In this document: positions 19,169 through 49,717 of the stretch, in pieces
Layout of the letters: each line of letters starts with the position of its first letter
How positions within the stretch are numbered: position 1 is the stretch's first letter
Notes under the pieces: generated by a model
Seen by the model: the letters and a program-made list of their open reading frames with translations, nothing else
What the model was told of the DNA's origin: nothing
The model's database searches: none
Made by a program: the position numbers and the translations under genes
Assembly (NCBI GenBank): GCA_935421135.1
Contig: OW285190.1
Span: 13,712,501-13,776,500 of the forward strand
Reading direction: 5' to 3'
DNA: 64,000 bases
From: Bugulina stolonifera
Lineage: Eukaryota; Bryozoa; Gymnolaemata; Cheilostomatida; Bugulidae

Positions 19169-20059
19169 ACTCCACTACTTGTTTAGTCTAATAATTACCT
19201 AAGGTGGTTCCTTGTCAACCCCTAGTAAGACAGAATCTTAAAAAGTGTCCATGGAGGTTGTAGAAGAGTTCTTGTAAGGCAGTAGCTAGCCTTTGCTGAC
19301 ACAAATGTTCAGCTTCTCCAGAGGGTGGAAAGTTACACTTTTTTAGATCTACCATCCCAAACCGATGCAGTTAAAGATTGTAATGTACAGTCATGTGTCT
19401 ACTTGGCTGCTAGTGCCAAATTATATCCTGGTTGTACCCATAGAGGTAACAGGGGAGATAACTCTATGGTTGTACCTTTGCTGTTAACAGCCCAATTAGA
19501 AATGAGGGATTCCTGTTTCCCAACTTCTTATTGGCTGTTACTCTAGCCAATAAAATTCATTGAATATAGACATGCAAATGAATAAATTGGAATTCCAGTA
19601 CTAATCAATTGGAACGTTCTAGAATTCTAGAACACTATGAGCGTTCAGGAATATAGTACATACTCGTAAATCATTTGTGTCACTGCTCAGTGCACACTCA
19701 CTATCATATTATACTTGTCAAGTTCTTGCTGCTCTAAATAGTAACAACCCATGCAACCAAAAGTTTTTATAAAAATATGGTTTCAATGTTGCTTACCATG
19801 AAAATATTAACACCAATCTGCAACCTATCACCTAATCTCATCAGGCCTAAAGATGTAGTATGGCACAGTTAGTATGACCCAGTGTGACACAGTTAGTATG
19901 GCCCTGTATATAGATTACTGTCATGAGAGGGAAATTCCAAGTTGCATGTAATGGATGAGGAGGTTGTTTATTTCTCTTACTAAACAAAGTAAAACTATCT
20001 AAAAAGTAAAATGTGTATCCAACCTATATTGATTATTGTATAATATTGCGTTTATAGCT

Positions 20060-23718: not shown

Positions 23719-24481
23719 TCAGAATATGGCTATACTGAGGCCATCAATCAACTGAGAAACTTGATTCTCTTCATCTAATATTGCAATGTTGTTGCAAGTG
23801 CCCTCAAGTGGCAATAAATTTCCATTAGCTGTCAACTCGACACCCGACACAGAGAAACACTCTTGGCTTTCCTTTATAAAAATTAATACGTTACGGAAAT
23901 CAAACGGATTAAACTTAATCACCTCTTCCCTCCTGTAAAAATTAGGTAAAAAGAGAAACAGCTTTACTGTGGAGTGTGGTATGAAGTTCTTAAAGCAAGA
24001 AATGGTGTGATCTTGAGATAGAATGTGCAAAAAAAGCAAGGGGGGATAATTGTTGTGCAGGTGACTATAATATTATAATAGCCTCTCTATATCTAAATTA
24101 CCTGCTGCTACTACTGTTAGCATTCTGTGACCTGAATGGTGAGACAACTCCAATATTATAAACAACTATAAACCAACTAGCATTTGATTTCTTCAAATTA
24201 GGAACGTAGTCATCAAATGATTGAATACAGTAGACAAAGTCTTGAAGCAAAACAAAGACATTGTAGAGCTATATATCATTGTAAGTAACAGTGATCTCTC
24301 TAGATAATCACCTCTTGCGTCTCGTGTTCAGCTGTTCCTCGATCTTGCTGTTGACGACGGAGAGTTTCTGCTGAAGGAGTGTCTGCTGATACTTATCAGA
24401 AGCTTCGTTTGCACTCTCCTCAATCTTCTGCTTCTCGTCACGCAAGTCTGATAGCGTTGTGTATATATCCTGGTGGACATC
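23719..24481 (-). CDS. PLCG: PLC-gamma exons 30-31: coiled-coil and C-terminal tail
   Basis: Exon 30 is rich in Lys/Glu/Gln with heptad-like spacing ([20 protein letters not shown]), which suggests a short coiled coil after C2. Its acceptor (CTATGAAG) is weaker than others. Exon 31 follows a strong acceptor (TTTTTACAG), reads [20 protein letters not shown] and ends IDGLSIAIF with TGA at 23719-23721. I do not recognise this tail in other PLC-gamma proteins. Confidence 0.75.
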
Positions 24482-30400: not shown

Positions 30401-33400
30401 ATAACTAGCAGTAGCATATCACAAGGTGTAACTAACAGTAGTATATCACAAGGTAGAACTCAAACTGAAAGGTAATTCGCTAACCTGATCTCAGACACTT
30501 GACAGGTATTGTAGCCTGCCCGAGGAAGTTGGGGTCTCCAAACACATCTTCATCCTGCACACAGAACCTGATCATAGCCAGGTCTGGGTTTACTATGTCA
30601 AAGTCTGTAGCCTCATTCCATACAGGGGTGAGAGCATTCTGACCTGTATAAAGATGTAGGTTATACACATATAGCTAGTATGTGCAGCACTAAAGTGAAT
30701 AGTAAATACCATGTTATTCCCCAACATCTATCCTTCTTTAGACTGAGCAACAGGCATTACAGAGAGCGTAGACCATTATATGGACAGCAGATTGGTAACA
30801 ACCCGACAGAATGAAATACAGCAAGTAATAAGTTCACATATCCCAAAACAATTTTCTCAACAAATCTATTTTATCCCAATCTAGAATCCAATTGATCACA
30901 TGGATTTGTATCACAAGAACCAGAGGCTAAATAAAAATCTTTAACAGCAGTGAATAAATTGGAACATGGTGACCATCAACAATCACTTGATGCAGCTGAA
31001 ACTACAGCTTGGTTACAAAATATGGTTACCATGGAAACAAAGCTACACACATTCAATCAGTGGTGGAAAGATGTGTAAAATAGAGTTGAATTTATTGTGA
31101 GAGTTGAAAGTGGGACAGCGTACCCAACTCTTGATATCAAGAGAAGTTAGGTATACATGCACATACACATTGTAGGTACGTGTAATATGATTGTAAAACG
31201 TCAACATCATCTGAGTGAAATTTAGAAATGAAACTTGCCTTCTTCTTTGCCTGTCAAAATAATTGTGTTGAAGATTTGATAAATATTTGAAATAGTAGTG
31301 CATTGCAGTCAGCAATTACAGGAACTACTTACTAGTGAGTGAATACTAAGTAGTTTTAAGTCACTACAGACAATAGTAACTAGGTACTAGTGAAACACTA
31401 CAGACACCTACTATTTAGTATCATTGTTTCAAGCTTTTAACACAAAAGCAGGCAAATGTAGGTCTCTGTTAGTTCCAATACACAACAACTCTCCACTTTA
31501 CCTTTCTTTTCAGTTTTAAACTTTTTCGTATCTTCATAGTATGAACCGAGTATTTCCACCTCAACAAAAGGACTAGGAATTCCCTTTCCCGGTCGGAATA
31601 GATGCCGACCTGCTAAAATCTAGGAAATAATATGGATATTGATAATTCATGGTTAAAATTTCAACACTCTTTAGTCAAATATCCTGTGCATCTTCACTTA
31701 GTAGCTGTCATGCAGATGCATATATTGGACTATATATTGGAAAGCTCGACTATAGCAATACTAATTGAGTATCCAATTCTTATTATACTTGTAGTAGGTA
31801 GTACTAGGTACTACAGTGGATAAAATATAGAATACTTACAATAAGTGATATGGTCATTGGGTTCACACCAACTAGTGACCTTTTATCGAAGGGGTCATAT
31901 ATGGGGTCATTGAGACAGTGAGGTTGTAGTACATAGCCACACCTATAAGCATATAGAAAAGTAAGTTGAGAATCGAGTAATGTCGGCCATCTTTATTATT
32001 CATATCTCAGAAGAAGTAGTTGAGCATTGAAAAAGGCTGATGAAATATGACACGTGTACATACCGGCAGAGTACACGTGTACCTGTACACTAGCCAATAA
32101 CACATTGACACGTATACATACTCAACAGAGTACACGTGTACATGTACATTAGCCAATAAAACATTTGCCACGTATACATACTCAGAAGAGTACACGTGTA
32201 CATGTACACTAGCCAATAAAACATTGACACGTCTTGGGTGATTTACATATGAATCATTACGATAAGATAAAAGATAAGAAACATGATTTTATAAACTTCT
32301 TATCCATAATGACAGGTCAATCAAATGTTTACACCTCATGTACTGGTATTGGAATTCCAATCTCAGGAAAATAATAACTTAAAAAAAATAGTCAGTCTAA
32401 TGCACACTTTTAATTTATTCAGTCACAGTGATGAAGTTATAGAGTTAGTGTTTATCACTTGGATTGAATTTAAATAGTCAACATCTCTGTTAACGCAGAT
32501 GGACAAGGCAAAACTAGATAGCTGGTAAAATAGCTGTAGTACAACTCACAGTCCATTCTGCATAAACCGTCCCTGGTTGATCTGCATTGCCTTGTCAGGT
32601 GTCTGGTAGTTAAGGGCAAGCATATGAGCTCCACAGCTCCAAGGCATGATCGGATCATAGTTAGAGCTGTCTATCCTCTGGCCTGTATGTTTCAAACAAA
32701 ATCCATTTGGCTCAATAGTGGACAGGGATTGACTTAGTCATAAATTATTGTAACAATAGGAAGGTGAAAGTGGCCCGATATTTTGCTTTTCAGGATTGAG
32801 CCAACACAACGCATGAATTTATGACCAACAGTTGTAGTGTGACTGATATATCGTTTCAGTGAAGTTTCTCCATAAATAGACACGGGGAGTGGAGATCCTG
32901 TACCTAATATTCAGGCTTTCGGGTGTATTAACTATTCACCACAAGGCACTACTAAATTGACCATAGGAATGAACCATAGCATGCTATACACTTACCCTTG
33001 GGGTATAGTATACGAATGAACCATAGCATGCTATACACTTACCCTTGGGGTATAGTATACGAATGAACCATAGCATGCTATACACTTACCCTTGGGGTAT
33101 AGTATACGAATGAACCATAGCATGCTATACACTTACCCTTGGGGTAAATACGACTGAACTGTATCATGTTATAGTTGAGGAATTGCTTCCCCTTGTTATC
33201 CTTCTTGGTGCAAACTTTCTCTGCCCTCAGTTCAGAGAAGGAAGTCATGTCATAATATGAGCTCGGACCTAGAATACAGACAACACACCATATAATACAG
33301 TTGTAATACACACTGTATTTATGTTCCCCATAAGTATATCTCCAGTGCATATGCTGTCTGTAGCATACCACACTGTAGTAAACATGTAGCACCAACCCAT

Positions 33401-36400
33401 AATGCATTGGTTATAAAATAAGTATTACATAGAAGCTCAATCTATTTCCTCCTTTATTCCAAAACCCACACATTTTCAAAGTGTTATCAGATTTCCTAAA
33501 ACTATTTTCCTTTCTACACGTACCTCTCCAACTGATACTTTCCTTACTTTATAATTATATAGAGGAGAAAAAGAATAGAACAAGAGAGAACAACTTCAAT
33601 ATCTAACCAGTAACCGTGAATGCACATGACATGGGTATTACAATATGGCTTAGTACAAGAAATAGGTAGACAAGGCATGTGACAATACAAGGGAACTGGA
33701 TGTTATGTACATGTAGTAAATCAAAGCAGACCATGAGTAAAAGGTAGGTAACTCCGTACTGAGCAGTTGCAATGGATAGACAACTTATAATTATATCTAA
33801 TAGTTTAGTAAGATAATAATAGCCACAAATAGCTTGTTTACACTCCTATAAAACATCCATTTGAAACTTTTAATCTATAGAAATATTATTTTAAACCTGA
33901 AATTTCAACATTGAAATGGTGAATACACAAAAGAGTATAACAAATGGCATACATGCAGATAACACTCCTAGAGGATAGTAGAAAACAGTCAGAGATTTGT
34001 TAAATGAGTCAGAGAGGCAGCTCACACGCTGACACAAACACTAAGCACTACTAACAACAGCAGGCAATGACAGCAGTATTCACAGCACAGTAGCAGGCAG
34101 TCTACTAATACACACCATAGAACTAAGTGTGTATATCCTAACACCAAGTCCAACTGAGATACACACAGTACACTGAGTACAGCATGAGACCAAAACACTG
34201 TACTCTATTTCATTGCGGTTTACTGTTGTAAACAAATAATCATGAGACCTTGATAACTAAAGCAAGAAGGTAGCCTAATAAAAGCAACTATTATTGCATT
34301 TACTATCTTCATCCATTGTAAAGTTAGAGTGTACATCAGGTACACCTACAGTGTGCAAGTAATAAAAATAATAACGAGATAATACAACTCCAAACCACAA
34401 CATATAACATGAGAAGTACCTACAGGTATAACTGCTTACTGCATCCTGCTGAGTTTTTGTATTCAATCTACTGCCTTTACCTACTGACAGTAAATTGTGG
34501 GCTTTAGTATTCACAGCTAATATTTATAACTGTTAAGCAGTTGAAATAGTCAACTGGCAAATACTAACTTTTTATATGTGAATACTTTATGCAAGTGAAT
34601 ACAAAAGGTCACTAGGATAGTTAACTGCACACAATACTGTTACATCACCTTCACCACAATCCTCATGGCTACAATGTATTAACAGCTTACATGTCAGCGC
34701 ATGTACAGACTTATAACCTTGGGCAACTAAGGCTAACAACGCAGAGGTTGTCATTCTAACAAAGAAGAAATGAACTGTAAATCCAGGTTGCCAATTTCCA
34801 CACTTTTGGTCTTCGTGTTAAGAAATATCATGCATTAAGTGTTAGCACATTAGCATATTGTAGGTATTCACCAACCTACATGTACATCTAAGGTTATATA
34901 ATACAGTAGATATACAGTAACTTACCCTCTGGGTTATATGGGGTAGATCGGCAGTATATGACAAGGTTAGAAAACTCCTCGGCTATTTGCATTCTCCTCT
35001 GTAGATTTCTAATCTTCTTGTCCTGTAAACCATAATAATGATAACATTAAATCCAGGCTGGCAGAAGCAGGCTACATGGGAGACCAGTTAAAGACCAACA
35101 GGTTGGTTTTACAGATAGAGCACATGCTCACGATGTCACAGGGACACAGGCACATGGACAATGAAATAGCACTAGTTCAGCACTATAACTACCATATACC
35201 TCGGCTATAGCCTGAGATCTACAGTTATCTATCTCAACCATCCAGTCCTTGACTTCTTGGGGATCGGCACAAGCAATCTTCAGGTGCTCATTGCCATCTT
35301 CGTACTGAAGCTCAAAACAATAGAGCAGCTTCTCATGTATGGAGTCAGAGGTAGAGGCCTTGAGGGAACCGTCGGGTACTAAAACACAAGGGGAGATAAT
35401 AAACAGCTGGAGATAACAGCTGGAAATTGTATGCACAAATATCATAATGATGAAACACAGCAGTGACCAATGCAGTGACCATTTTAAACATATTTTACAT
35501 TGTATATAAAGTCAATGTTTTAGATATCTCTGGCAAAATATTATCCTGTAACCAACATAGTAAAGAGAAGACAACCTCCAATATGTGACACACTGTACCA
35601 TGCACTATACTACCATACTCACTCCTATTCAAACAATCTGAGGTTTAGTTTGATAATTAGTAGATGATATTTTAGTAACTGACTAACCAATGTAAATACG
35701 CTATACAATGATACTACATTGATTCTCACACTAGCTACCTAGAGAGATAACAAGAACATTTAACAGAACACAAGATAACTGATAGCCTAGGTTCCAATGA
35801 CATCAAGAGAACAGGTGGGCTATGCAATCAATCATAAATACACCTCTAGTCCTTCAAGAGAGGTTAGGAACCGAGACTATGTGGTTAGGAATCACATGAC
35901 AGAGAAGAAAGTTTGGTATGAACTCAACGTTTACCTAGTTGACCGTCGACGTTGATGGCCCTGAAAGACCTTCGACAGGATATATGGTTTCTAAGGTGCA
36001 TGCGTGAAATATAACCATTACCTTCCATTTCAAGTTTACCCAGATATGCTAACAACACACTAGATGAACTATTTGCAAGTTCTCAGATATCATGTGTTAG
36101 ATTTGAGCAAAAAACTATAAACAATTAAATTATTACGGATTAGAAAGTAATATTGCAAAATGGTTGTCATGTTTGAGATAGTCCAATTACATGTAAGTGC
36201 TCTAAATATGTTGAATTTATGAAAGATAACAATTTGTGAGAAGTTGGTCCCATCAATGGGTCTTACCCACAAAGTCAGTGTCTTGCGAATACGTCACCTA
36301 CTTTTAAAATGTAAGACCGCAAAATATAACATACAAGAATTAGTGCTTTGAAGTTGTCCATACATTGCTGTTCTAGCTTTTGTTCTGTAGTATAGACAGA

Positions 36401-39400
36401 CAGTGGACATCATCATTGTAGGCTAAGGATTAGATACAGATGAGCAAGAATATACTTACTGCACTTGGTAGACCTGGAGATATTGATGGATCCCTGCTGT
36501 AATGACCCCAAACCATCTTCAATCTGTTCCACATGGTTGCTAGGAAACCATTTTGCCATTTGTTCTCCAAGGTCACCTTGCCACCTAAAAATATATACAA
36601 ATAAATATGAACTATTTGACATATTATGTTATGGAATATACACTAATTTATGCCTGATGAGAGTACATGTAAGTGTGGTACTGAGGTAAAATAAGGACTA
36701 AAATAACCAATAGCAGACAAGTATACAATTTACACACTGGTTCTATTCCGAACCAATCATATGATATTACTTCCCATCACCGTCCAATCAACAGGATGAT
36801 TGGTTTCTACCTGCAAACACATGCATGACGTGTTAAACCTACATGTACATACCAATCTGGAGTTTTCTTTAGCACATTGGTGATTACATCACCCTTAGAG
36901 AATATGAGCTCATCGCTTCTGTCTGGTTTCCTGTTGTGGACAGCTCTACACTGTATATTGGAAGGCTGTACTTCATTAGGTTGTGTGTAGATACCGCCAC
37001 CATATATGGATACCTCAGTGTCACTCTGTAGAGATACAATATACTATAAGATACACGGAATGTGTGCGTGTGTACAACCCATACAAGACTTACACATGTA
37101 TAGATAATAGATAATTTATGGACATGGAAGTGTATTATAAACATTTAATATCTATATCCATATAATAGTGGGAAACAATGACTAAATCTAGTGTTATTAG
37201 AATAATAATGATAAAGACACAGAATATTCCAGTATGTGTATTTCAAATGCAACTATAGCTTTAGCCCAGGTTTTAGTGCATTAAACCCATCTATAACCGA
37301 ATTCTCACAGTCATAGGCTATGAACTGATTGACTGACTGACTGACCTCACCGCACTTGTCCACGAGTGCTTTATTCACAGCGTATCTCAGCTTCATCTTA
37401 CGATAAAGTGGACGCTTCTGATAGTATGACACCAGCTCAGGAAGTGACTCAAATGTGGCCGAGCCAATCGAATACGAGGAGCCATCCGGAAGGATACGGC
37501 AATGTTTTATCTTATTCTCAGCTCTAAGGTACAGAAATAGTGTTACATTAGACGTCATTGCTGCATAATGAGAAACAACAAGAATGTAATAACACAGCAA
37601 TGTTGAGGCATTGGGCCGTTCTTTCTGATAGTCAAGGTTTTGGAACAGTTATTAGTACAAAGGTATATAAATACAAAGGTGTACTGTAGTTGATCAATCT
37701 ACACACCAATGGTAACACGAGCAAACAGAACATATCGTCTCATAGAGTATTCTCGAAAGCAACAGGATGATAGGCTTACCTGAATGAGATGGCAAACGAG
37801 TTTTTACCGTCATCCTTGAAACGCTGACGTATCAGGAAAGCACCATCTTTAGGTATCTTAGAGAGCCACTCCTCAGCCTCCTCTCTGTTCATATTCTGGT
37901 GATACCAGCTAAAAGAACACCAGACATGAGCAGTAGCCATACATAAACAGTAGCAATCAATTGGTCATTTTTATATAAATTTATATGCATCTGCAGTGGA
38001 AGAAGAGAAGAGAAAAAGAGTAGTGGCGGCGGAGGGGAGGAGTAGCAGTGGTGGCAGAGGGGGAGGAGTAGCAGTGGAGGGAGAGGAGTAGCAGTAGTGG
38101 TGGAGGGGGAGGAGTAGCAGTGGTGAGTGTTGTAGGCTAAAGTAGCTGGATCCTACTCTGTCAAAAATCGTTCCATAGGATACTAAATAAACAAATCACT
38201 TTTGAGCATAAAAGATTTTGAGCATAAGAAATCATGTCCTTTCGTGGTGATGCTGGCACCTTGTTTAAAATAGATATAAGTAACATGTACATGTATATAT
38301 TACATATTATATTATACATGTATACAACATAACAACTTACTCTTTGCCAACAGGAGAAGGGATCTTCGGGACAGGCTCCCTCAGACACAACTCAAAGTTC
38401 TGACTGCGTAGTTTATTCTGTTTATAGAACTCTATGAGTTCATACAGGCTATCAAATACAAGATTCTCAACCAGACAGTACCTGGTCCTACCCTGGTCTT
38501 GTCTTGACTTGATCCTACAGTGATTGGCCTTGTCATGCTGCCTATAACAACAAAAGTCAGCTAATATAGTACTTCACAGTATGTAGTTGTACTATTGCAC
38601 AACCTTATGTGTGATGACACTGACATGTTGTGGATAGCCCCATGGTCTCTTCTTGCATTCCCTTTGTCTTTATATTTTCAATTGGGAGTTCAACCGTTCT
38701 GATCCTTTTTCCATTACACTTACATAACAGATGTCTGAAGACAAACAATTTACTAAAACCTATAATAAGCTGTTAGAGTACATGCACAAACACAACACAG
38801 TAGCATGGAAAACACTTCAGCATTGACTAGCAAAAGGGAATTAGTTTGAAATAGCACAAAGTATATTTGAGCAATTGCAGGAACTGTAATAGCAGCATCA
38901 ACTAAATATTAATGTGAAAAGACAACATGAATATTCACACATTCAGCAGTGTAGTGAATCTTAACTCCCCAATTTCCTATTTACCAGCATAAAGGCCTAA
39001 GTCAGCACTAACAAAACAATCCATAGGGTTCATACTGCATGCTAATGCTAGGGATATGCATAGCAACTGGTGTCTTCATGTTTAGGGTGAGGCTGCTAAC
39101 AATTCCATGTTGTTTGTACTGCTAGTTCACTATAATACTACTCATATCCTATATTAAAGTGACCTATTGTATTTGTGTATACAAAGTATCTACTATTCAC
39201 TGGTAGTATGTTTATGCGACTCTTTCAACATCCTGCAGAGATCTTGAAAACCACCTTCTAGTTTCCTGTCTACAATATCTCACTAAATACTGCAGCAAAG
39301 CACTGCCCATAATTCATAAGCGACAGGGGCTTGTGGGGAAACTAACATGTACTATGGGATAATGGTTAAAACTAGCTCCAATTGACAAGCACATGCTTCC

Positions 39401-42400
39401 TCACGCCAGGCTTAGACCACTAAAATAAGACAATCAACTCAATCAAGTCCTCCATGCTCACAAAATCGTGCTTGATAAGAAAGCATGCAAGTCATAGGGT
39501 TAGTCTTCCATCCACAGGTTAGTGTGTCATGAGGTAACCAGGAACCAGGGCTATATTAGCCACATACAGATGGACTTGGCAACACAAATGGTAGAGCACA
39601 ACAAAGAGCTGAAAGATAGGTGTTAGCCTCTAGATAGACAGACAAAATATAAAATAATATTAGCCACAAAGTAGCCCACATCAACTATCTACCTCTCTAC
39701 ATACCAAAAACTCAGTGTATAACTGCCAGGGAAAGTGTCACTCTCTCTAACTAAAAATGTAGCAGGACCGAGATGTTGATGAGCTGATAGCAGTTGATCT
39801 CCAGTGTTACGACCATCAGGAAGTCGGCCATGATACCACGGTTCGTATTGATGGCGCTGTTCCAGTGACACATTCTACAATATACAATGCGAGCAGGATG
39901 ACTTGGTGACAGTCCAATGGGTAAATAATCACCTACCAAAAGGTAATGGTATAATTCCCAGGCGCAGCATTGCTCTCCCTGACCAAGAAATCACCATGAC
40001 TCAGCTTAGACCTGTTGGAAAGAAGTAATTGCACCGCGGCCCTCTCTTTACCAGCCAGCTCAGGATGGAACCAAGGCTCATTCATGTACCTTCTCTCCTG
40101 GAATAACAATACGTCAACAAACAAGCTGATGACATGTTATAACAGGTGCACTGTGCCTACCCTCTTCTCCACCAGGAAATAGGACTGTTCTGCAAAGTTG
40201 TAACATATCCAAACGGTTGGATTTTACTGATACAAGTGTTTGGGGAATTTCAAACATCAAGTGCTATCAACTTATGTATTGTATCTTGTATTTTTGTGAC
40301 TTAATGCAATTAGTTTACACTTGTTATACAGCAGCACACTTTAACTAAACTCAAGGGTGGATGAGAGGTCAAGGTCACCCTCTCTGAGATGACATTTTAC
40401 CCTCACCACTATGCATAGTCATATCCACAAGGACACATTACTATACCTCTAGACCTCCATTTATATCTAAGCTGGCAAGAGATAGATTGTCATCATCGTC
40501 ATCTTCTGTCTTCACTTCAGTTTGATCCGTGAAATACAGACCTGTGTTGGTAAGCATGAAGAAGTGCTGATTCCACTCCTACCAATAATAACAAGGAACA
40601 ATATAATTATAATAGTGCACCAGTGTTGCAGGTTCACACGGAATTACCTGCAACTGATGTTATGACTGATTTCATTGGCTAACTGATGTTATGACTGGTG
40701 CCATTGGCTAACCGATTCTTTAGGTTTGTTACTATTTGAATCCATTGAAAATTTCTCCCTACAGGTACAAGGGAGACAATTCTGACCTAAATTTGGCTCA
40801 TATGAAATTGATTCATTGTCTGCCATTCTCTGTCGATCTCCAATATTCTCCATATAAAAACTAGATTGGTACAAAAGCCATGACCCTTCTTAGCAATAAA
40901 CATCAGGCATATGAGAATTATACACCAGTACATACATAGAGTAATAGATATATTCACATTAAAATCTAACGTCAAGTTATCACGATAGATGAGGGAGGCA
41001 GGATAGGAAATGGTGTGAGCAATGAGCCATCATATGATCAATCGGAGTCCAGAATTTGTAAAATAATATATAAACACAATTCATCGCCAATAGTAATGAT
41101 TGTTTAGTATGAATCAAATTAAAATTTCAAAAAAGTAGAACTAGAACTAACCAAGGAACTTCGGACCAAAAAAACTTGGAAACTATACCCCTCTAAAAGA
41201 ATGACACAATTATTAGTGTGTGGCACCAATATGTCTACATGTATATAGACACACCACGTAGGTACATTTGGGTCTACATGTATATAAACATAACATGTAG
41301 TGTAGTATAAAGGTTTAGTAATGTATACTGAATGAATCTTTAGTTTACCTGGATAGCGCTTCCTATCTGACAGAGAGCTGTGCAAATACAAATACTTACT
41401 GTACCATACAGCATGTAAAATATATGCCTACCACCAAATTACCCCTCTATACCCATTAAGAGTAAAAATTGTCTGCGAGTTCAAATTTTCACAAGTTTTG
41501 AGTAATTGTTTTCTCCTTGTATTTTTTCATCCAAAACTACTATAACTGACAGACTTCTGCAGGTGCTTTACCAGATTATTATAAAAATACATATATAGCT
41601 CTACAATTTGTACCTCTCTGTTGACAGCGTTCAGCAGGTGCCTTACTATACTATAATATAAATATTATACCTCTTTATTGACAGGATCCTGCAGGTATAA
41701 TAAACCAGTTTTTCTGCTCTGACTAATGTCACTCTGGTTTATGTCTCCAATCTCAATAAAGTCGTCCTCCTGGACTCCCAGTTTCCAATCATTTCCTAAC
41801 TTTTTATGCTGCAAGTATGGTACAAAGTACATTGATCATACTGTACGTAAATGCTTTATGGAGATATCCTGATTGAGTGAAAGAAAATACATAAAGTTAT
41901 GTAGTATAGCACATGTACACGGGGTGAGAAAACTTTAATCGATTTCCCAAGTTCGTGCAGTAATGGCCCAAGGTTTAAAGCTACATACAGAAAACATATA
42001 CTTTGCCATAAAAAGTAATTGGCATGAAAACACATGGTACACAGACTAAGCACAATTTCTATGAGAACTCATAAGCTATTGTTCATAATAAGAAGTTATG
42101 CTCACCTGTACAAAGAGAAAACAAATTAGAGAGGACAACTTCCTATTACGACCAGTGGTAGATGCCACACTACTTACCTTGAGTATGAACTTCCTTTTGA
42201 GTTGATTTGGAGAGGGTAGTCTAGCAGCATCTTTATCTACAGGGGCGACTAGTAGGTCATCTGTAAACATAGACCAGGTATTACATTGATCTCAGGCTAT
42301 ATTTAGTATCAATATGCAGCAACAGCAACAGAATATTTCATGCTAATAACTGACCTTATGCATTGCACAGCTGGTGCAGTCAAATGGTTCATCAATTGAG

Positions 42401-45400
42401 AGAACTGGTTCCTATGACTAAATTCCAGCTACTAAAACTTTCAGTAAATGTAACCAAAATGATGCTTTATCAGAAACTGTCTACTCCCGAGATGGTATCT
42501 ATTGATCAGTACTAAGGAACAAACATGAGTCAACTTTCAGGGTAAAGTATTGTTTGCAATTTGCCAGACACAGAAAATGCTCTAGTTCACCCTGGCATTA
42601 GGCTAGTTGTAGTGAAAACATGGAGAGCATACTCACCTCCTAACACCTCTGTAAACACTTCTGCCATTCTCTTCTGTTGACTGAGTGAACAGTGGTTCTC
42701 TATTGAAAGCACTATTGGATAACTGCAATGCACATCCCACAACGTACCATTACATGTATATTACCATCATCTCATGTAAATGTGGTATATAATATTACAG
42801 ACTATGTAGTATATCACAAAGTATAAGCAAATGCATAACAAATTAATAACTCAGAGATTACAAAATCCGTTTAAGGTCAAACGACAAGACGATATTAGCT
42901 GGAGAATGTTTGAGCACACTTAGGTAACTAGTATAACTAGTAGTTAAATGAACTCAACGATATAATGATCAAAATTGGCCACTCTCCCATACTGATCTGA
43001 ATACACTCTCTAGTAGAATGGCTCATTGTGATGCTCACAAACAATGAGACAGTCAAGAACTCATTTCCGGCTTGATAGTGTTTGGTGAATTGCTAAATGG
43101 ATGATAACTTGTACATGCACTGAAAATGAATATATCCACTGTAAGTGCGCATGTACTGAAAATGAATATATCCACGGTAAGTACACATGTACTGAAAATG
43201 AATATATCCACTGTAAGTGCGCATGTACTGAAAATGAATATATCCACGGTAAGTACACATGTACTGAAAATGAATATATCCACTGTAAGTACACATCTAC
43301 TGGAAAGGAATATATCTACTGTAAGTACACATGCACTGAAAGTGTATATATCCAATGTAAGTACACATCTATGAAAGCGTATATATTCACTGTCAGTGCG
43401 CATTTACTGAAAGTGTATATACCCACTGTAAGTACACATGTACCGAAAGTGAAGATAACTTACTCTGAGAACTCCCAGGCATATTTCTTTATACCTTTCA
43501 CAACATCTACAAACTTTATTTTGCTAGTCAGAGTTCTACCATGGAATATGTGCGGGTAGCCATCAGGACCATCCCAACAATCCACTAAAACAGTAGCAGA
43601 TTTATAGTTACATTTGTATTGGACAATTAAACATCTATGAGTAGACTAGAGTTTTTACGTTTGCTGCCAAGCACCTCCGTGTGTGGTCATACAGCTGCCT
43701 AGTCTATTATCTTATTGAAACCATCTATCAAGCATAGATCACCTAGCCTGTGGTCCAAACTCTCCAAATCCAACCTCAGACCCAAGTTCTTCCTTCAACC
43801 AACAACATACCCTCAAACAATATTCACTGACCAATCTAGTCCCTACACTTATACTGTCAATAACCAACCCAGTCAGGTAAAACACATTGTAGCGAATCCA
43901 TTATTTACTATGGTAAGGGTGTTAGTATGGGTAGCTGCATTATATATAGTACATACTTAAGATAGACGACATGTTAGTTTAATTCAACTTACACTCAATG
44001 CACCTAGCACCCATTCGCAGGCACTGGATATACGCCTCCACTGAGGAGTTACTTTTGAATTGGTCACCTTGTAGATATCTATAAATCAGTCAACGTTCAT
44101 TATGAGTTGCAATAACTTGACGTAGAGCGCAGTATGCAACAGACCAATGACAAATATAGAAATATGTACTTGATATGAATTGAACATTGTATGTACTTGA
44201 ATGTGACTAGACATTACACTTGAGTACATACTAATACCCTGGTACATGTACTTGAGTATTATTTATATATAACATTGTTTAGATGCTATACTATTACCAA
44301 AGTTAGATACCATATAAGTGAATGAGTGTCAACATAATAATTAAGTTACAAAACCTGATCACAAGGGTCGATTAGCATAACACCTCCATATAAAACATCT
44401 TCCTTCTCCCTAATCACTACTGTACCTACTCTTCCTGATGGCTAATTTTCACAACAAAACAAGCAGCTGAATGCTTATAATAACATTATACTAGTCTAGA
44501 GATATTAGCAGAGCAAAATATGATGATTTAGTATTGCACACAATACATGTAATAGATGAGGACATTTAGCTTGAGACTCAAGCCCACCACAGTAGAACAC
44601 ACTGCCACTGATATAGTGGAGTAAATCAATTGTTTTGAGAATCTAGACTAATCCACTGTATTAATGCATAGAAGATACCAGTTGTAATAATAAATACAAG
44701 TAGTGAGAGACGACTCCCAGGTGAGGGGGGATAATATAAAATACTGCTAAAGTGTTTATCATACAGTAATGGCTAGACATACGTGTTGTGGGAGGAAGCT
44801 ATGAAATAATGAGACAGAGGCTGGTCCATATCCTGGTACAGGTTCCTTGTACTCTCGTCCCAGATAGAGTTCTCCGCGGAGAACAGATAGTTCAGGAACT
44901 ATGAAAAAGTACAAGACGCATACCTTTATTGTATGAATCAGTTGCAGAATGACAATCAATTTCTAGCCTTATCTATAATATTATAGATCAAGAGACACCA
45001 TGACACAGAATCTAAACAAAGCTTGATAAAGGCATTATGTAGACTTGTAAAGGATCGAGAGAAGAAATATCCATCAGCAATCTGATGCATCATGGGATAT
45101 TGTATAAGACCTTTTACCTCTATAGATGAGAATTTGATGTTACACGCAGACCTTCTGGGATCATCGAGGAGAGATATCATGAGTCGGCTAGCTGCCAGCT
45201 GATCCGTGCGTTCGTGATTCTCTGTGGTTAAGAAAGACGCGAGTCGCTCTGAGTTGACTGTTGGCAGTGAGCTATGGAGAGAATATAGATGCATGTATAT
45301 ACATTTACATGCCTGTGATATATACAAATAGATAGGGTAACATACTGTATGATACCTTCAGGAAGTATACCCCTCTTTAGAAATATCTTGAGATAGAATA

Positions 45401-48400
45401 TACTGATTGTTGGTTTGAACATAGACTATCATTAGGTCCATCATAGGCTTACTAGAGATGTATTTAATCGTTGGGTCGCATTGTGTGCATTATTAGACCA
45501 CACTGTCTGCCATGTGTTCAACTAGTACTGGACAGCATGGAAACAGAAAACAAGATGGAAGTATGAGTTAAAAAATTTTGGTTGAATGCAGATGTCCTTG
45601 AATGATGACTAAAAATTGACCTCGTCGGTCAGCTTCTCTCAATTACTGACCCCTACAGTCAAGTAGCACAAGGTACAACAAATTGTAGCCTAAAGACATT
45701 AACTATAGGGAATAGCCATAGAAATTCTATAACAAGTATATCTAGATGACAATAATACTCACTCGTGAGAGTCACGGCTACTGTAGAGATCAAAGTAATC
45801 ACCGAAGAGTTTGGATGGATACATAATTCTATGGTAGATAGAAGCAAAGTCTTCGTATAGAATGGGGTCATCAGGATTTAACCTACATGCCTACAATAAC
45901 ATACTATATAATTATCCATAGAAAGTCAATATATTATACAATTGATATTACATACTAGATCCCAGGTGCATGGTGCCACTACAATGAGCATATATTGTGA
46001 GTATAAAGTATCCATAAATGCATGCATGTTATGTTAGATTGAATTTCACAATGACTTATAATTCCCCATAATAATGAATTGTGTTTTAGCCACCAAAGGG
46101 TTGCAATAGAGAGAGGAGGATTATTGGTGTACAAAACAACATAAAGCAGTAGAAAATATACGGATTGTATTATATAACAGTTCGTATACAACATCACTAA
46201 GGTGTATACTATTTAACACTCAAATAGGCCTATAGACTGCACTGCACTACGTATATTATATGATAACTACACTACATGTACTTCCTCTTGCTACGATAAT
46301 TGTTACACATAATGCCCCAAACTATATGACACAGCAGAACGTATCAATAAATTACTGCTCTGTCATAAAGTTTAGGAAACAAATACATTTTATTGTTTTG
46401 TATTCCTATATGATTTTAGCTTAGAGTGTTTGATAATACAATCTAGAATTTTAGGCAAGATTAATGGTGTATGTTGAAACACAGAAATATTGTGGACTAA
46501 GATAGTGGTTCTTAGAAAATTGAACTGTTACTCACTACACCAGCTAAGTATACAGACAGAAAGACTTAGTGTGGTTGATATCATCATGATGATATGTAAG
46601 ACTGGACACCAAAGCCAGGGAAATAATGCATGTACAAATATCAACACCAAGTCAGGTGAATGGTGTATAGCTTGGTAGCCTACATGAGTTTCCTGGTTGG
46701 CGACTAACATCTACTACTGACTAACAGCTACTACTGGCTAACACCTACTACTGACTAACAGCTACTACTGACTAACAGTGCTACTGACTAACAGCTACTA
46801 CTGACTAACAGCTACTACTGACTAACAGTAACTACTGACTAACAGCTACTACTGACTAACAGCTACTACTGACTAACAGCTACTACTGACTAACAGCTAC
46901 TACTGACTAAAGGTGATTACTGGCAAACAATTACCAATAGGAGGGCTGCAATGTTAGTAAGTAATATTAGTAGCTGTTGTTAGTAGTGAGCAGTAAACAT
47001 GTGCAGAGTACTCATTTTTAACAAGCTCTATAAAAATTCTGAGAGGTCAGCAAGAAGGAAGGAAAGAAGGGCTCTAAATACAAACAGCGGCCAAGAAGTT
47101 TGTTATGAAAGATCATAGCTTAGCTTATCTCAACTGTGGGTTGCAAGTCAAAACATCAGTTGGAGTTACACCATCTAGAGTTTATCTGCCTTAAAATATA
47201 CCTTGATATGATCCTTGAGCCTGGTACTGCTGATCTTACAATAAGATTTGGACAGCCACTTCTTGATGTCACTGAACATAACCGACTGTGACTTCCCTCT
47301 CAGTTCATAGAACTCTTTCCTCAACCACCTGGTAGAATACAGAATAGTGGATTCATCATATATTTTAACATGTACACATGTATATCTTATACTCAGAATA
47401 ACGAGTCCATATGCAAATGTCTACTAATATTCTATGTGCATTCCAACTACTAGATTCACCGATTCAAGTCCATTTGAGCAACTTTTCAGTCGGAAGATAG
47501 AGAACCGTGATAATGAATAAGTTTCACACAAAATAAAACACATTTGAACAAAACTTTACTACATGACTGATATCTCCTATCAAAGCCAAAACATCGTAAC
47601 CATTTATTACAATTTGCATTGCCCTGTAGGCCTATATAATAAAGTTTACATCACCTTTCTATTTTCAGTGGGAAAGGAGCATTCCGAGTTGTTTCCGACA
47701 GGTACTGTAGTCCGTCCATCAAAACACTCAATTGATATTGTGACTGGGCTGTTAACATGACATATTATGTGAAATACAGTGTGATTTCATTGTGTAACAG
47801 GTAACACTACATAATACTACTACTGCTGATGCCAACTCTATCAGTGAAATGCACACAAAAACTCAAATTATTCTCTGTCTGCCAAATAGTGAAGAGTACA
47901 GAGTGATACCTTTCTAATGGCTCTCCAAGAAGAAGAGAGATTAGGAAACTCTTAGACATAGGAATTTGTACAGCATACAATTAACCTATATACAGGACGG
48001 TGACAGCGAGGAGTTGTGTACACTTATACATGCAGCTTGACACAGTATATATGGCAGATTCATGAAAACAGCTAATGATAGAAGACATGCTAATTACCAA
48101 CTACATAGTACATTGCTATACATCCACACTACTGTCGGTATTAGAACTGTCAGTACTCAACATAATGTAATTAGTATATTCGACAGATGTTGAGCTTTCT
48201 AGAAATGTAGAAAATTGAGTAATAAGTATACTATAGAGACTGCTAATACCCTAGTGTAGTGGTAGTGTTTGTAGTCTAAGTTATGAGTACTAGTTCCTAG
48301 TACATATAAGCCTACATGTAATAATATGAAACATGTATAGCTATATGGATACATCGGATTATTATATACGTCATGTCGTTGCAACATACCAAATTTTATA

Positions 48401-49717
48401 TAAAATATTGTAAACTCCAGTAGTTAGGATGTAAGGGTGAACTATCAAGTCAGTCCATGGGTTTCCCCCACAAAATATCAAATATTGTGATTACAATAAA
48501 TACAACTATTCGTAGATCTACATGTAGCTATATATAATAATAATATGACATTTTTGTTTGCTAGTTTTCTCTATGAAGTATTTCCAGCTTTTTTACATTA
48601 ATTAATTTACATGTACTTAGTTAGATAGAGCACACCGCTATGACTAATAACTAATTGCTTATAGCTGGACACACCTTGCAAAGACAGATGTTTGAGGACA
48701 AATTCATCACCATAATGAAGAGAAAAGCAAAGATTGCTTATAACTGTGTCAGGGGGAGCCTTGTCAAACTCTTTCGTTTCTTTATCGTCTGCATTTTTTA
48801 GCCTTATTTCCTTAAGCAGTCGCAGATCAACTAAAACAAAATGCAATGTACATGATATTCCAATGATTTGCAACACTTACTAAACTAAAACAACCAAACA
48901 GTCAATAATTTGAATATTAGGACAGCGTTATCATACGTGCTACTTTAACAACAACATTGTAGTAATTTAATTTAAATTTAACTGTTCAACCCTGTGAGTA
49001 AGGTCTATAAAGAGAGGTTCCTAATAAACAAACCCACATTGCAGCATACTATAACTAGTCTATCTCATGCACAGATGTATATCTAAAAAGCTGTGTACTA
49101 CATCCAGACAAAGTAGCAAGAATTTCATTGGTCTACCTATGAATTATCTTCTGATATAAAGGTTTACTTGGAAATCACATCAAGATTAATTAATTCTAGC
49201 AAGCATTTAGAGGAATTGAAAAGGATACAAGAAAGGCGTGAACTATAAACACATCTATTTATTCACATAGGCGAACTGGACGATGTGGAATTCCCCATGT
49301 GATAGTCACAGAACAATGTACACTTACTGCCAGAGAGCAGGAACAAAACATTTATATACACACCTGAGCCATCTGGTTTGACCTGATTCTCTACGTGTAT
49401 CCATATTAGTTCCCTTGTCTCGAGGCGCACTTTGAATGTTAGCTTCTCCGGACGTCTTTTCATAAAAAACCTATAAAAAAGGAATGATTCTTAATAAATG
49501 ATACGAGTTCCATAATTAATACCAGTTACCGAGCACACCTTTCAAGTTTGAAGGATAAAATTGCGAGAATTTGAAGTTGAGGGAAGGCGACTACAAGTAA
49601 GTGATAAAACACACCTGTAGATAAACACTTTGAAATATTTTTCAGAGACCAAACTCACCTTGTTAAGACTAGCCCATCCTCAAGGATGCGTAGGTTTTCT
49701 TCCATGTTAGCCATCAT
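23719..49717 (-). CDS. PLCG: Phospholipase C-gamma, complete gene of 31 coding exons
   Basis: Hydrolyses PIP2 to IP3 and diacylglycerol downstream of tyrosine kinases. Exons, 5' to 3': 49659-49717, 49364-49470, 48675-48830, 47655-47748, 47202-47328, 45763-45890, 45118-45271, 44783-44898, 43993-44078, 43464-43584, 42637-42722, 42178-42260, 41671-41808, 40447-40578, one of 39937-40097 or 39705-39874, 38341-38541, 37780-37908, 37346-37523, 36853-37025, 36460-36584, 35935-36048, 35200-35378, 34926-35022, 33137-33268, 32550-32682, 31840-31942, 31502-31619, 30485-30643, 24812-24900, 24312-24481, 23719-23932. With 39705-39874 the frame is 1,357 codons with stop (1,356 aa), and every phase matches. 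Order: PH, EF-hands, X box, split PH, nSH2, cSH2, SH3, split PH, Y box, C2, coiled tail. Both catalytic His are present. Confidence 0.95.
24812..31619 (-). CDS. PLCG: PLC-gamma exons 27-29: C2 domain
   Basis: Exon 27 [20 protein letters not shown]; exon 28 [20 protein letters not shown] and [15 protein letters not shown]; exon 29 [20 protein letters not shown]. The motif order is that of the PLC C2 domain. Exons 28 and 29 are separated by a 5.6-kb intron because a hAT transposon has inserted there. Confidence 0.93.
25262..25531. repeat. Minisatellite on the left of the hAT insertion
   Basis: Five copies of AGTAATACAACTAAA (about 25262-25331), then copies of a CATATAGTATAACTAACAGTGGCATAC unit (from about 25440). 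The same second unit resumes right after the transposon (30332-30460), which shows that the element inserted into a pre-existing repeat. Confidence 0.85.
25929..29532 (+). CDS. hAT transposase, three exons, interrupted by one in-frame TAG
   Basis: Exons 25929-25960, 27025-27128 and 27419-29532 chain with matching phases to 750 codons. N-terminus MQSSLQNWL. Zinc-finger-like region with C94, C97, H145, H151. Catalytic-core motifs LLDEST (D256), GADGCSTM (D327) and [10 protein letters not shown], then the hAT dimerisation segment [11 protein letters not shown] near 666-676, close to KIAA1586/ZNF862-type hAT proteins. Codon 634 is TAG (29182-29184); the frame continues open for 115 codons after it. 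So the element is either freshly inactivated or makes a product lacking the dimerisation domain. The rest shows no frameshift. Intron 1 (25961-27024) contains a 400-bp AT-rich run. Confidence 0.9.
26030..26420. repeat. AT-rich low-complexity run inside transposase intron 1
   Basis: Almost pure A/T with TAATTA, TTATTA and AATAAT motifs in both orientations. It lies wholly within the first intron of the transposase gene, so it belongs to the transposon, not to the host gene. Confidence 0.8.
30332..30460. repeat. Minisatellite on the right of the hAT insertion
   Basis: Alternating CATATAGTATAACTAGCAGT and ATATCACAAGGTGTAACTA units continue the array seen before the transposon at 25440-25531. 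Confidence 0.85.
31840..35022 (-). CDS. PLCG: PLC-gamma exons 23-26: catalytic Y box
   Basis: Exon 23 [20 protein letters not shown]; exon 24 [15 protein letters not shown] and FSRIYPKG; exon 25 [20 protein letters not shown] and [18 protein letters not shown]; exon 26 CGYVLQP and [10 protein letters not shown]. These match the substrate-binding Y box. The donor of exon 24 lies in the last unit of a 47-bp tandem repeat. Confidence 0.94.
32048..32228. repeat. About 60-bp minisatellite in PLC-gamma intron 25
   Basis: Three copies of a unit with GACACGT, CATAC, CAGAGTACACGTGTAC and ACTAGCCAATAA. The ACACGTGT core is palindromic (E-box-like), and GCCAAT is a CCAAT-type motif, both probably incidental. 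Confidence 0.85.
32967..33146. repeat. 47-bp tandem repeat that multiplies the exon 24 splice donor
   Basis: 3.8 near-perfect copies start at 32967, 33014, 33061 and 33108. On the gene's strand each contains CCAAGGGTAAGTGT, the last bases of exon 24 plus its donor. The true donor, at the end of exon 24 (33137), lies in the fourth copy; the other three are intact decoys further into the intron. Confidence 0.92.
35200..36048 (-). CDS. PLCG: PLC-gamma exons 21-22: second half of the split PH domain
   Basis: Exon 21 (35935-36048; acceptor TGTTGTTAG, donor GTAAAC) reads [18 protein letters not shown] and [10 protein letters not shown]. It has no long frame of its own but is needed to keep phase between the SH3 and exon 22. 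Exon 22 reads [20 protein letters not shown], then [13 protein letters not shown], the C-terminal PH half ending in its Trp helix. Confidence 0.87.
36460..37025 (-). CDS. PLCG: PLC-gamma exons 19-20: SH3 domain
   Basis: Exon 19 reads [16 protein letters not shown]; its two Tyr residues sit where vertebrate PLC-gamma has the activating phosphotyrosine between cSH2 and SH3. It continues [20 protein letters not shown]. Exon 20 has [20 protein letters not shown], the SH3 core with the split Trp codon at the junction. Confidence 0.92.
37346..38541 (-). CDS. PLCG: PLC-gamma exons 16-18: rest of nSH2 and C-terminal SH2
   Basis: Exon 16 gives [10 protein letters not shown] and [16 protein letters not shown], the second half of nSH2, followed by the inter-SH2 linker. 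Exon 17 begins the cSH2 with [15 protein letters not shown] and FLIRQR. Exon 18 completes it ([23 protein letters not shown]). The donor of exon 18 is GAG|GTCAGT; an alternative G|GTGAGG five bases upstream would break the frame. Confidence 0.92.
38010..38130. repeat. Purine-rich GGAGGGGGAGGAGTAGCAGT repeat in intron 16
   Basis: Several degenerate copies of GGTGGCGGAGGGGGAGGAGTAG-like units. On the transcribed-gene strand this is a pyrimidine-rich tract upstream of exon 17. Confidence 0.75.
39705..39874 (-). CDS. PLCG: PLC-gamma exon 15b: alternative first half of the N-terminal SH2 domain
   Basis: 170 bases, phase 0 in and phase 2 out, acceptor TATATTGTAG and donor GTATGT. Reads [20 protein letters not shown], then [18 protein letters not shown], very close to vertebrate PLC-gamma nSH2. 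It splices to exon 16 through a shared Trp codon (TG|G), exactly as 15a does. Confidence 0.93.
39937..40097 (-). CDS. PLCG: PLC-gamma exon 15a: alternative first half of the N-terminal SH2 domain
   Basis: 161 bases, phase 0 in, phase 2 out, flanked by acceptor TTATTCCAG and donor GTAGGT. Reads [18 protein letters not shown], then [19 protein letters not shown], with the SH2 phosphotyrosine-binding Arg of FLVRES. It is less like vertebrate nSH2 than 15b. Its length is 2 modulo 3, and it is separated from 15b by a 62-bp intron. Joining 15a to 15b would shift the frame, so only one can be used per mRNA. Confidence 0.9.
40447..40578 (-). CDS. PLCG: PLC-gamma exon 14: first half of the split PH domain
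   Basis: 44 codons, phase 0 at both ends, reading [19 protein letters not shown], then an acidic run (TEDDDDDN). This corresponds to the N-terminal half of the PH domain that is interrupted by the SH2-SH2-SH3 array in all PLC-gamma proteins. Both alternative SH2 exons follow it in phase 0. Confidence 0.9.
41671..44078 (-). CDS. PLCG: PLC-gamma exons 9-13: catalytic X box
   Basis: Exon 9 [20 protein letters not shown]; exon 10 [20 protein letters not shown], with the second catalytic His (IFHG); exon 11 [20 protein letters not shown]; exon 12 [14 protein letters not shown]; exon 13 [13 protein letters not shown], at the entry to the split PH domain. All are close to animal PLC-gamma, so the barrel half is intact. 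Confidence 0.94.
43105..43450. repeat. 36-bp minisatellite with acceptor-like sites in PLC-gamma intron 10
   Basis: At least nine units of GTAAGTACACATGTACTGAA followed by AATGAATATATCCACT, starting near 43105 with the phase mark GTAAGT at 43141, 43177, 43213, 43249, 43285, 43321 and 43357. On the gene's strand the best-conserved units contain TTCATTTTCAG, an acceptor-like site. The array abuts the donor of exon 10. Open frames read through it on both strands are artefacts. Confidence 0.92.
44783..47328 (-). CDS. PLCG: PLC-gamma exons 5-8: EF-hand region and start of the X box
   Basis: Exon 5 begins [14 protein letters not shown] (family WLRKQFY); exon 6 [19 protein letters not shown]; exon 7 [20 protein letters not shown]; exon 8 [16 protein letters not shown], then [11 protein letters not shown], which includes the first catalytic His. 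In exon 8 a different frame is also open; splice phase and homology select this one. The EF-hand loops look degenerate for calcium, as is usual in PLC-gamma. Confidence 0.92.
46701..46915. repeat. 17-bp minisatellite CTACTACTGACTAACAG in PLC-gamma intron 5
   Basis: About twelve copies with minor variants (ACTGGCTAACACC, CAGTAACTACTG). On the gene's strand the unit reads CTGTTAGTCAGTAGTAG. There are no spacers, so this is not a CRISPR-type array. Confidence 0.9.
47655..49717 (-). CDS. PLCG: PLC-gamma exons 1-4: N-terminal PH domain
   Basis: Start ATG ATG at 49712-49717, then [16 protein letters not shown]. Exon 2 carries [20 protein letters not shown], matching the PH-domain core of animal PLC-gamma; exon 3 carries [14 protein letters not shown]; exon 4 (47655-47748) carries [13 protein letters not shown] and FPLKIER, the end of the PH domain leading into the EF-hands. 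Exon 4 gives no long open frame of its own but is required by phase and by family alignment. Confidence 0.92.

What the first reader, a model, noticed from the sequence alone, without database searches (positions are those of the whole stretch)
39705..40097. Mutually exclusive exons for the phosphotyrosine-binding half of the PLC-gamma N-terminal SH2 domain
Two adjacent exons (39937-40097 and 39705-39874) each encode the first half of the nSH2, including the FLVRES phosphate-binding Arg. Both enter in phase 0 and leave in phase 2 through the same split Trp codon. Their lengths (161 and 170) are both 2 modulo 3, so including both or neither breaks the frame. The 62-bp intron between them may be too short to splice efficiently. 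They differ in residues around the ligand pocket ([13 protein letters not shown] versus [13 protein letters not shown]) and in the first helix, so the splice choice would switch receptor specificity. I know of no such SH2 exon switch in vertebrate PLC-gamma.
Basis: partly seen in the sequence, partly recalled or inferred. Interest (0 to 1): 0.9.

Follow-up and report, generated by a model that had tools for sequence, protein, structure and literature searches.

The report
Swappable phosphotyrosine pocket in bryozoan PLC-gamma
A bryozoan gene for the signalling enzyme PLC-gamma carries two alternative versions of the exon that builds the phosphotyrosine-gripping half of its receptor-docking domain, and only one can be spliced in at a time if the protein is to be made; this is a familiar splicing trick in an unfamiliar place, still without RNA proof.

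Summary
In a bryozoan genome (probably Bugulina stolonifera), one minus-strand PLC-gamma gene has two adjacent exons, 15a (40097-39937) and 15b (39874-39705), 62 nt apart. Each encodes the first half of the N-terminal SH2 domain, with equal phases and the same split Trp codon. Joining both makes a TGA at the junction; using neither makes a stop after two codons. 15b is the conserved form (89% identical to Watersipora). 15a is divergent (44% to 15b); no other relative was found in the genome or the protein database. It does not look like a relic: silent sites are saturated, amino-acid sites are not, and 0 of 4000 neutral simulations kept that identity. The 62-nt intron is far shorter than 63 others sampled (minimum about 117) and below the branch-point spacing proposed to block joint splicing. 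Best reading: a tandem-duplicated, mutually exclusive pair. 'Receptor specificity switch' is not shown: the canonical specificity pocket lies in the shared next exon; the swap changes the phosphate pocket (BC loop TF to AA). I favour two docking strengths. No RNA data and no second bryozoan genome were at hand; the annotated Watersipora protein is 15b-type.

The parts
40447..40578 (-). PLC-gamma exon before the pair (end of first half of the split PH domain), ends in phase 0 ...GGLE
   Evidence: splice borders; 80% identical to Watersipora P0001 484-527
39937..40097 (-). exon 15a: first half of nSH2, divergent form ([53 protein letters not shown] + TG)
39875..39936 (-). 62-nt GT-AG intron between the two exons; only yUnAy match 15 nt from the 5' splice site
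39705..39874 (-). exon 15b: first half of nSH2, conserved form ([56 protein letters not shown] + TG)
   Evidence: 89% identical to Watersipora P0001 528-584
38341..38541 (-). shared next exon: completes the Trp codon and encodes the second half of nSH2 (betaD, EF loop, alphaB, BG loop by homology)
   Evidence: 88% identical to Watersipora
37780..37908 (-). cSH2 first-half exon (WYHQNM...), phase 2 in and phase 2 out
37346..37523 (-). cSH2 second-half exon
   Evidence: Watersipora match
36460..37025 (-). two SH3 exons (37025-36853, 36584-36460)
24311..49714 (-). extent of the PLC-gamma gene as matched piecewise by Watersipora P0001 residues 1-1246 (PH, EF, X, split PH, nSH2, cSH2, SH3, split PH, Y, C2)
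   Evidence: tblastn; domain list of P0001

Best explanation
Exons 15a and 15b are an old tandem-duplicated, mutually exclusive exon pair in the one PLC-gamma gene found in this cheilostome bryozoan genome. Shown from sequence: either exon alone keeps the frame; both together stop at the joint (TG|A); neither stops after two codons; 15a bears the mark of protein-level constraint. Inferred: the 62-nt intron is too short for U1 and U2 to assemble together, so joint splicing is disfavoured, and leakage is removed by nonsense-mediated decay. The choice swaps betaA, the betaA-alphaA loop, alphaA, betaB, the BC (phosphate) loop and betaC of the nSH2, leaving the specificity-pocket half unchanged. 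Most likely effect (inferred): two PLC-gamma forms that dock on phosphorylated receptor kinases with different strength or off-rate, 15a probably weaker or differently timed, rather than forms that read different peptide sequences.
For: Phases, split codon, open frames and stops. Constraint on 15a: 52 aligned codons, identity by codon position 0.54/0.63/0.29, pS 0.95 (saturated; about 35 silent sites) against pN 0.39; neutral drift of 15b to the same nucleotide identity (window base composition, transitions twice as likely) kept an open frame in 254 of 4000 runs and reached the observed amino-acid identity (23 of 52) in 0 of 4000. 15a fits the PLC-gamma nSH2 profile better than four other SH2 pieces of the genome (50.7 against at most 39.5 bits). 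15a and 15b enter in phase 0, whereas the cSH2 and SHP-like nSH2 half-exons enter in phase 2, which favours copying within this gene. 62 nt against 25 introns of the 15b form (min 177) and 38 myosin gaps (min about 117). Short spacing and frame incompatibility match human pairs: potential steric interference in 57 (9%), lengths not divisible by 3 in 377 (60%), of 629 clusters (PMC5740500, passages). nSH2 is the kinase-docking domain and its betaA/alphaA loop is rearranged to take pTyr766 of FGFR1 (PMC7004563, passages). In 15a the BC-loop Thr-Phe (99% conserved each in 120 homologues) is Ala-Ala.
Against: No RNA. The annotated Watersipora protein is 15b-type, named without an isoform tag, cluster size 1. 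No 15a-like protein at E <= 1e-3 (9 candidates). 15a departs from 12 of 30 conserved positions, more than any of 120 homologues. The 15a donor is weak on a small matrix made from this gene (3.5 bits; below 24 of the 25 others, 3.2-12.1), and the 15b acceptor is among the weaker ones (3.5; range 1.4-10.2). The tree does not place 15a and, as drawn, sets it beside SHP2 and a second non-PLC SH2 (92/78); AU rejects neither its union with all PLC-gamma nSH2, nor with 15b and Watersipora, nor with SHP2 (p 0.385, 0.365, 0.495). Alone, 15a matches SHP2 and SHC in the PDB as well as PLC-gamma1. The 50-nt rule is from vertebrates.
Confidence: 0.65

Rival explanations
1. 15a is a once-used exon now silent or nearly so; all working PLC-gamma uses 15b.
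For: Only the 15b type is seen in the one Watersipora protein; the 120 listed homologues all score higher with 15b; no 15a-like protein found; weak 15a donor and most deviant of the nSH2 halves examined.
Against: Open frame, GT-AG borders and correct phases kept at saturated silent divergence; 0 of 4000 neutral runs keep this identity; FLVRES, EPWFH and LL core kept; 15a acceptor is fairly strong (8.2 bits; 25 others 1.4-10.2).
Confidence: 0.2
2. The pair mainly controls dose: splicing 15a to 15b makes a stop at the joint, so regulated double inclusion would switch PLC-gamma off through decay, and 15a acts as a poison exon as much as a coding one.
For: TG|A stop exactly at the joint; frame-incompatible joins do occur in validated exon pairs elsewhere (PMC5740500, passages).
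Against: A pure poison exon needs no coding constraint, yet 15a shows it; the 62-nt intron should splice poorly.
Confidence: 0.08
3. 15a was not copied from 15b but captured from another SH2 gene (for instance an SHP2-like one) and then fitted to the PLC-gamma frame.
For: 15a alone matches SHP2 in the PDB about as well as PLC-gamma1 (best single stretch 26.9 against 27.6 bits, SHC 28.3; whole-chain E 1.1e-11 for SHP2 from two SH2s against 2.5e-5), whereas 15b alone finds PLC-gamma1 first; the tree puts 15a with SHP2 and another SH2 of this genome, support 92/78; the mid-SH2 phase-2 intron is shared by SHP-like nSH2 and PLC-gamma cSH2, so the 3' phase is not diagnostic.
Against: Phase 0 entry and the EPW start match 15b, while SHP-like nSH2 and cSH2 half-exons enter in phase 2; better fit to the PLC-gamma nSH2 profile than the genome's own SHP-like SH2s (50.7 against 35.0 and 17.1 bits); 15a has a very long branch (3.6), so its place is unsafe.
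Confidence: 0.1
4. The exons are mutually exclusive and the swap does change which phosphotyrosine sites are read.
For: A single pocket mutation in SHP2 nSH2 changed sequence preference (PMC10369915, abstract and passages); PLC-gamma1 nSH2 uses an extended surface on FGFR1 (PMC7530234, passage).
Against: EF loop, alphaB and BG loop, the canonical specificity pocket, are by homology in the shared exon (PMC7530234).
Confidence: 0.25

Closest known systems
Mutually exclusive exons made by tandem exon duplication (human atlas PMC5740500 and OGDH 4a/4b PMC7969005, passages; muscle myosin heavy chain PMC3912159, search listing only)
   Same: Adjacent homologous exons of like length in the same phase; frame break on double inclusion; intervening intron short enough for steric exclusion
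   Different: Not confirmed by RNA; the swapped unit is half of an SH2 domain; 'SH2' occurs 0 times in the main text of the human atlas (its supplements were not read)
Fyn-B/Fyn-T alternative exons (PMC3044655, passages; exon position relative to SH2 recalled, not read)
   Same: Alternative exons in an SH2-bearing signalling protein; tissue-biased forms
   Different: As I recall, the Fyn exons cover the end of SH2, the linker and the start of the kinase, not the FLVR pocket
PLC-gamma nSH2 domain (PLCG1 4fbn, 3gqi, 7nxe; PLCG2 2dx0)
   Same: With the shared exon, 15b and 15a both match it first (E 1.1e-41, and 5.7e-38); FLVRES Arg and domain order kept
   Different: 15a changes G of WFHG to P, BC-loop TF to AA, and has one more residue in or near alphaA; without the shared exon 15a no longer finds PLC-gamma first
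SHP2 (PTPN11) SH2 domains
   Same: 15a alone resembles them about as well as PLCG1 nSH2
   Different: Different exon entry phase and poorer fit to the PLC-gamma profile

Membership tests
PLC-gamma | PH-EF-X-split PH-nSH2-cSH2-SH3-split PH-Y-C2 order in one gene | tested here: met
   piecewise tblastn of Watersipora PLC-gamma along 49714-24311; of five PLC-type loci only this one was matched by the nSH2 exons
PLC-gamma nSH2 | FLVR Arg (betaB5) and SH2 signature in both forms | tested here: met
   FLVRES in both; Pfam SH2 in both; fold itself not modelled
PLC-gamma nSH2 | alphaA2 Arg (column 100% Arg in 120 homologues; the name alphaA2 is my reading) | tested here: inconclusive
   kept in 15b; in 15a an Arg is one residue further on and aligns only if the one-residue gap is put in the betaA-alphaA loop; MAFFT puts Glu there
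Mutually exclusive exon cluster | adjacent homologous exons, similar length, same entry and exit phase | tested here: met
Mutually exclusive exon cluster | double inclusion or double skipping breaks the reading frame | tested here: met
Mutually exclusive exon cluster | junction reads bridging each exon, none joining the two | not testable with these tools
   no RNA reads at hand
Steric type of mutually exclusive splicing | 5' splice site to branch point under about 50 nt | tested here: met
   by length: any branch point 15 nt or more from the 3' splice site of a 62-nt intron is at most 47 nt from the 5' one; sole yUnAy at nt 15; real branch point not mapped
Docking-selector RNA type of mutually exclusive splicing | strong pairing between intron elements | tested here: not met
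   best pairing score 16.5 reached by 41 of 60 dinucleotide shuffles; no relatives for a covariation test
Pseudo-exon or relic | decay: stops, lost splice borders, neutral divergence | tested here: not met
Captured SHP2-type exon | groups with SHP2 SH2 and not with PLC-gamma nSH2 | tested here: inconclusive

The most novel reading that the evidence does not exclude
Bryozoans switch the phosphate-binding half of the PLC-gamma docking SH2 by mutually exclusive splicing, giving one gene two receptor-docking settings (the conserved 15b and a diverged 15a with an altered BC loop and betaA-alphaA loop), perhaps by zooid type or stage; vertebrates instead have two PLC-gamma genes (recalled; both appear).
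Probability: 0.42. Interest if true: 0.65.

Novelty: new variant of a known kind. Interest (0 to 1): 0.5.

Why it matters
SH2 docking strength is a main control of receptor signalling. A natural exon switch that exchanges only the phosphotyrosine-pocket half, on an otherwise identical enzyme, would be a ready experiment on how pocket and specificity surface divide the work, and on whether PLC-gamma signalling can be retuned by splicing. It would also add a deep-diverged exon pair in a phylum for which I met hardly any splicing data.

Tried and rejected

15a as a piece of a second PLC-gamma: no second PLC-gamma nSH2 was found in the genome (best candidates only). Origin by capture from another SH2 gene is kept as a rival because the tree cannot place 15a.

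RNA pairing as the selector: best pairing is no better than shuffles. Other exon pairs in this gene: none at E <= 1e-4; the remaining self-matches of the window lie in tandem repeats, in direct duplications near its low end (about 2-10 kb), in the IAP array, and in one weak pair near 21.0 kb that I did not follow. A possible 60-nt intron inside a myosin match (C2:19596069) was fetched and read; I saw no intron there.

Other bryozoan DNA: none reachable; the genome search says the genome has no relatives there and metagenome scans are capped at 0.

Literature: searches (0 papers; 25 listed of 748; 11 of 11; 6 of 6; 8 of 9) on mutually exclusive exons, SH2, PLC-gamma, alternative splicing and Fyn showed, by title and start of abstract, no paper on an SH2-pocket exon switch; of the 11 I opened one (PMC9132324). 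That is the open-access PMC library only. Passages seen: PMC10213821, PMC13326412, PMC7534450, PMC5740500, PMC7969005, PMC9132324, PMC4463651, PMC10369915, PMC7530234, PMC7004563, PMC3044655. No paper was read whole; PMC3912159 and the rest were seen in listings only.

Full report
What the window is. The window is C4:13712501-13776500 of a 234,951,659-base eukaryotic assembly in 27 contigs. The minus strand from about 49.7 to 24.3 kb carries one PLC-gamma gene. The best protein relative is PLC-gamma of the cheilostome bryozoan Watersipora subatra: 80% identity over the query stretch from the split PH to the SH3; the other 119 listed are at most 51%. The size (235.0 Mb) and longest scaffold (36.8 Mb; here C1 is 36,811,656 bases) fit the published Bugulina stolonifera assembly (PMC10213821, passages; it reports 30 scaffolds, not 27). 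The species name is therefore an inference. Four other PLC-type loci exist; neither nSH2 exon matched any of them.

Checking the observation. All coordinates, lengths, phases and peptides in the finding are exact. Exon 15a (40097-39937) and exon 15b (39874-39705) lie between the exon ending the first half of the split PH domain (40578-40447) and the exon for the second half of nSH2 (38541-38341). I spliced the combinations: 15a alone and 15b alone are open; both together give TTT TGA, a stop made by the joint itself; neither gives Ala-Ala-stop; retention of the 62-nt intron gives Trp-stop. So only mutually exclusive use makes PLC-gamma.

Which exon is the conserved one. Watersipora's protein matches 15b at 89% over 57 residues and 15a at 41% over 54. 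The 120 proteins listed all score higher with 15b. Among all 169 proteins fetched, 10 do not score lower with 15a: 7 tie (6 of them with no match to either exon) and 3 score higher with 15a on weak matches of at most 30 bits (P0153, P0154, P0140). 15a, used alone as the search region, found no protein at E <= 1e-3 (9 candidates); the search with the 15a form of the PH-to-SH3 region found 49 shorter proteins, the best-scoring one 43% identical over the whole query.

Is 15a real coding sequence? Over 52 aligned codons (aligned by hand) 15a and 15b share 23 residues and 76 of 156 bases. Identity by codon position is 0.54, 0.63 and 0.29: the third position is near chance, the first two are not. 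By a simple Nei-Gojobori count pS is 0.95 (saturated; about 35 silent sites) and pN 0.39. When 15b was drifted without selection to the same base identity, the frame stayed open in 254 of 4000 runs and amino-acid identity averaged 0.21 with a maximum of 0.37, against 0.44 observed (0 of 4000). The copy thus looks both old in silent sites and long constrained as protein. This does not show that it is used today. Against a profile of 120 homologous half-domains 15a scores 50.7 bits, 15b 89.9, and four other SH2 pieces of this genome 39.5, 35.0, 19.8 and 17.1 (the genome has 48 SH2 matches, the rest untested).

How different is it? Of 30 positions at least 85% conserved in 120 homologues, 15b keeps 23, 15a 18, and every homologue at least 22 (the homologues themselves define the positions). 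15a has Pro for Gly in WFHG, Ala-Ala for the BC-loop Thr-Phe (99% conserved each), and one extra residue in or near alphaA, so the invariant Arg that I take as alphaA2 is matched only if the gap is placed in the betaA-alphaA loop; MAFFT's own alignment has Glu there. FLVRES, EPW(F/Y)H, the LL of alphaA and the final Phe-Trp are kept. Names of SH2 elements are assigned by alignment to PLCG1 and recall.

Origin. 15a alone matches SHP2 SH2 domains in the PDB about as well as PLC-gamma1 nSH2 (best single stretches 26.9 and 27.6 bits; SHC 28.3), and because SHP2 has two SH2s it ranks first (E 1.1e-11); 15b alone finds PLC-gamma1 first (4.2e-10). A tree of 47 rows and 57 columns puts 15a on a branch of 3.6 beside SHP2 and another SH2 of this genome (92/78), but AU tests reject neither its union with all PLC-gamma nSH2 (p 0.385), nor with 15b and Watersipora (0.365), nor with SHP2 (0.495). 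Gene structure helps: 15a and 15b enter in phase 0; the cSH2 half-exon and the SHP-like nSH2 half-exon enter in phase 2. All four leave in phase 2 at the same place, which looks like an old SH2 intron (the SHP-like cSH2 frame runs on past that place), so the exit phase is not diagnostic. Tandem duplication inside this gene is the simplest account.

How exclusion would work. The intron between the exons is 62 nt. The 25 introns of the 15b form run from 177 to 1657 nt (introns next to the first and the last two pieces matched by Watersipora were not included). Of 90 myosin-head matches, 38 neighbouring pairs gave intron estimates from about 117 nt up (raw gap 87 nt for the shortest); by the numbers one further match holds about 114 extra bases inside it. 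None of these is near 62, though very short introns hidden inside a match could be missed. In a 62-nt intron any branch point 15 or more nt from the 3' splice site is at most 47 nt from the 5' splice site; the only yUnAy match is at nt 15. Human work treats under 50 nt as potential steric interference and found it in 57 (9%) of 629 clusters, with lengths not divisible by three in 377 (60%) (PMC5740500); OGDH 4a/4b is a worked example (PMC7969005). Whether that threshold holds in bryozoans is unknown, and ultra-short introns are spliced in some human genes (PMC4463651). Splice-site scores from a small matrix of this gene: 15a acceptor 8.2, 15b acceptor 3.5; 15a donor 3.5, 15b donor 5.5. I found no RNA pairing above shuffles (41 of 60 as good).

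What the swap would do. [quoted passage not shown] The pair swaps the first group up to betaC; betaD, EF, alphaB and BG are in the shared exon (placement by homology to PLCG1). [quoted passage not shown] I therefore expect a change of docking strength or timing first. A change of sequence preference stays possible, since one pocket mutation in SHP2 did that (PMC10369915).

What speaks against. There is no RNA evidence; Watersipora's annotated protein is 15b-type with no isoform tag; no relative of 15a besides 15b was found; 15a is the most deviant of the half-domains examined. A silent relic is the main rival to the splicing claim (0.2); the specificity reading is the main rival to the function claim (0.25, overlapping with the best explanation on splicing).

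Verdict. Observation confirmed. Mutually exclusive exon pair likely. Specificity switch unproven. Known mechanism, new site: I found no described exon switch of an SH2 pocket in the listings.

Noticed in passing
window 32963-33146: A 47-bp repeat, 3.9 copies, 99% alike, begins at the donor of the Y-box exon 33268-33137, so that the 5' splice site CCAAGG|GTAAGT stands there in four copies; alternative donors would add multiples of 47 nt.
   Followed up: partly
window 2086-3888, 6129-8102, 14376-15686, 18122-19174 (minus): Four long single-frame ORFs with BIR (inhibitor of apoptosis) domains in a row; the first two are 93% identical over 597 residues.
   Followed up: partly
window about 8546-10151: Stretches 725 bases apart are 100% identical in translation on both strands, a recent direct duplication.
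   Followed up: no
window 53703-54071 (minus): Weak match to sodium:neurotransmitter symporters (SLC6-like) upstream of PLC-gamma, below Pfam's cut-off.
   Followed up: no
P0042, P0043 (Scleropages formosus): A fish PLC-gamma-2-like protein model holds two nSH2-cSH2 pairs in a row; could be a real domain duplication or a gene-model error.
   Followed up: no
L003 (G000:C7:8861000-8868000) and window 37523-37908: The mid-SH2 intron is in phase 2 at the same codon in SHP-like nSH2, PLC-gamma nSH2 and PLC-gamma cSH2, as if inherited from an early SH2 gene.
   Followed up: partly
G000:C3:13825498-13826625 and 13839642-13840596: Two SH2 two-exon matches of like layout 14 kb apart, probably a tandem gene duplication.
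   Followed up: no
window 43113-43457: 36-bp repeat, 9.6 copies, in the intron after the X-box exon 43584-43464.
   Followed up: no
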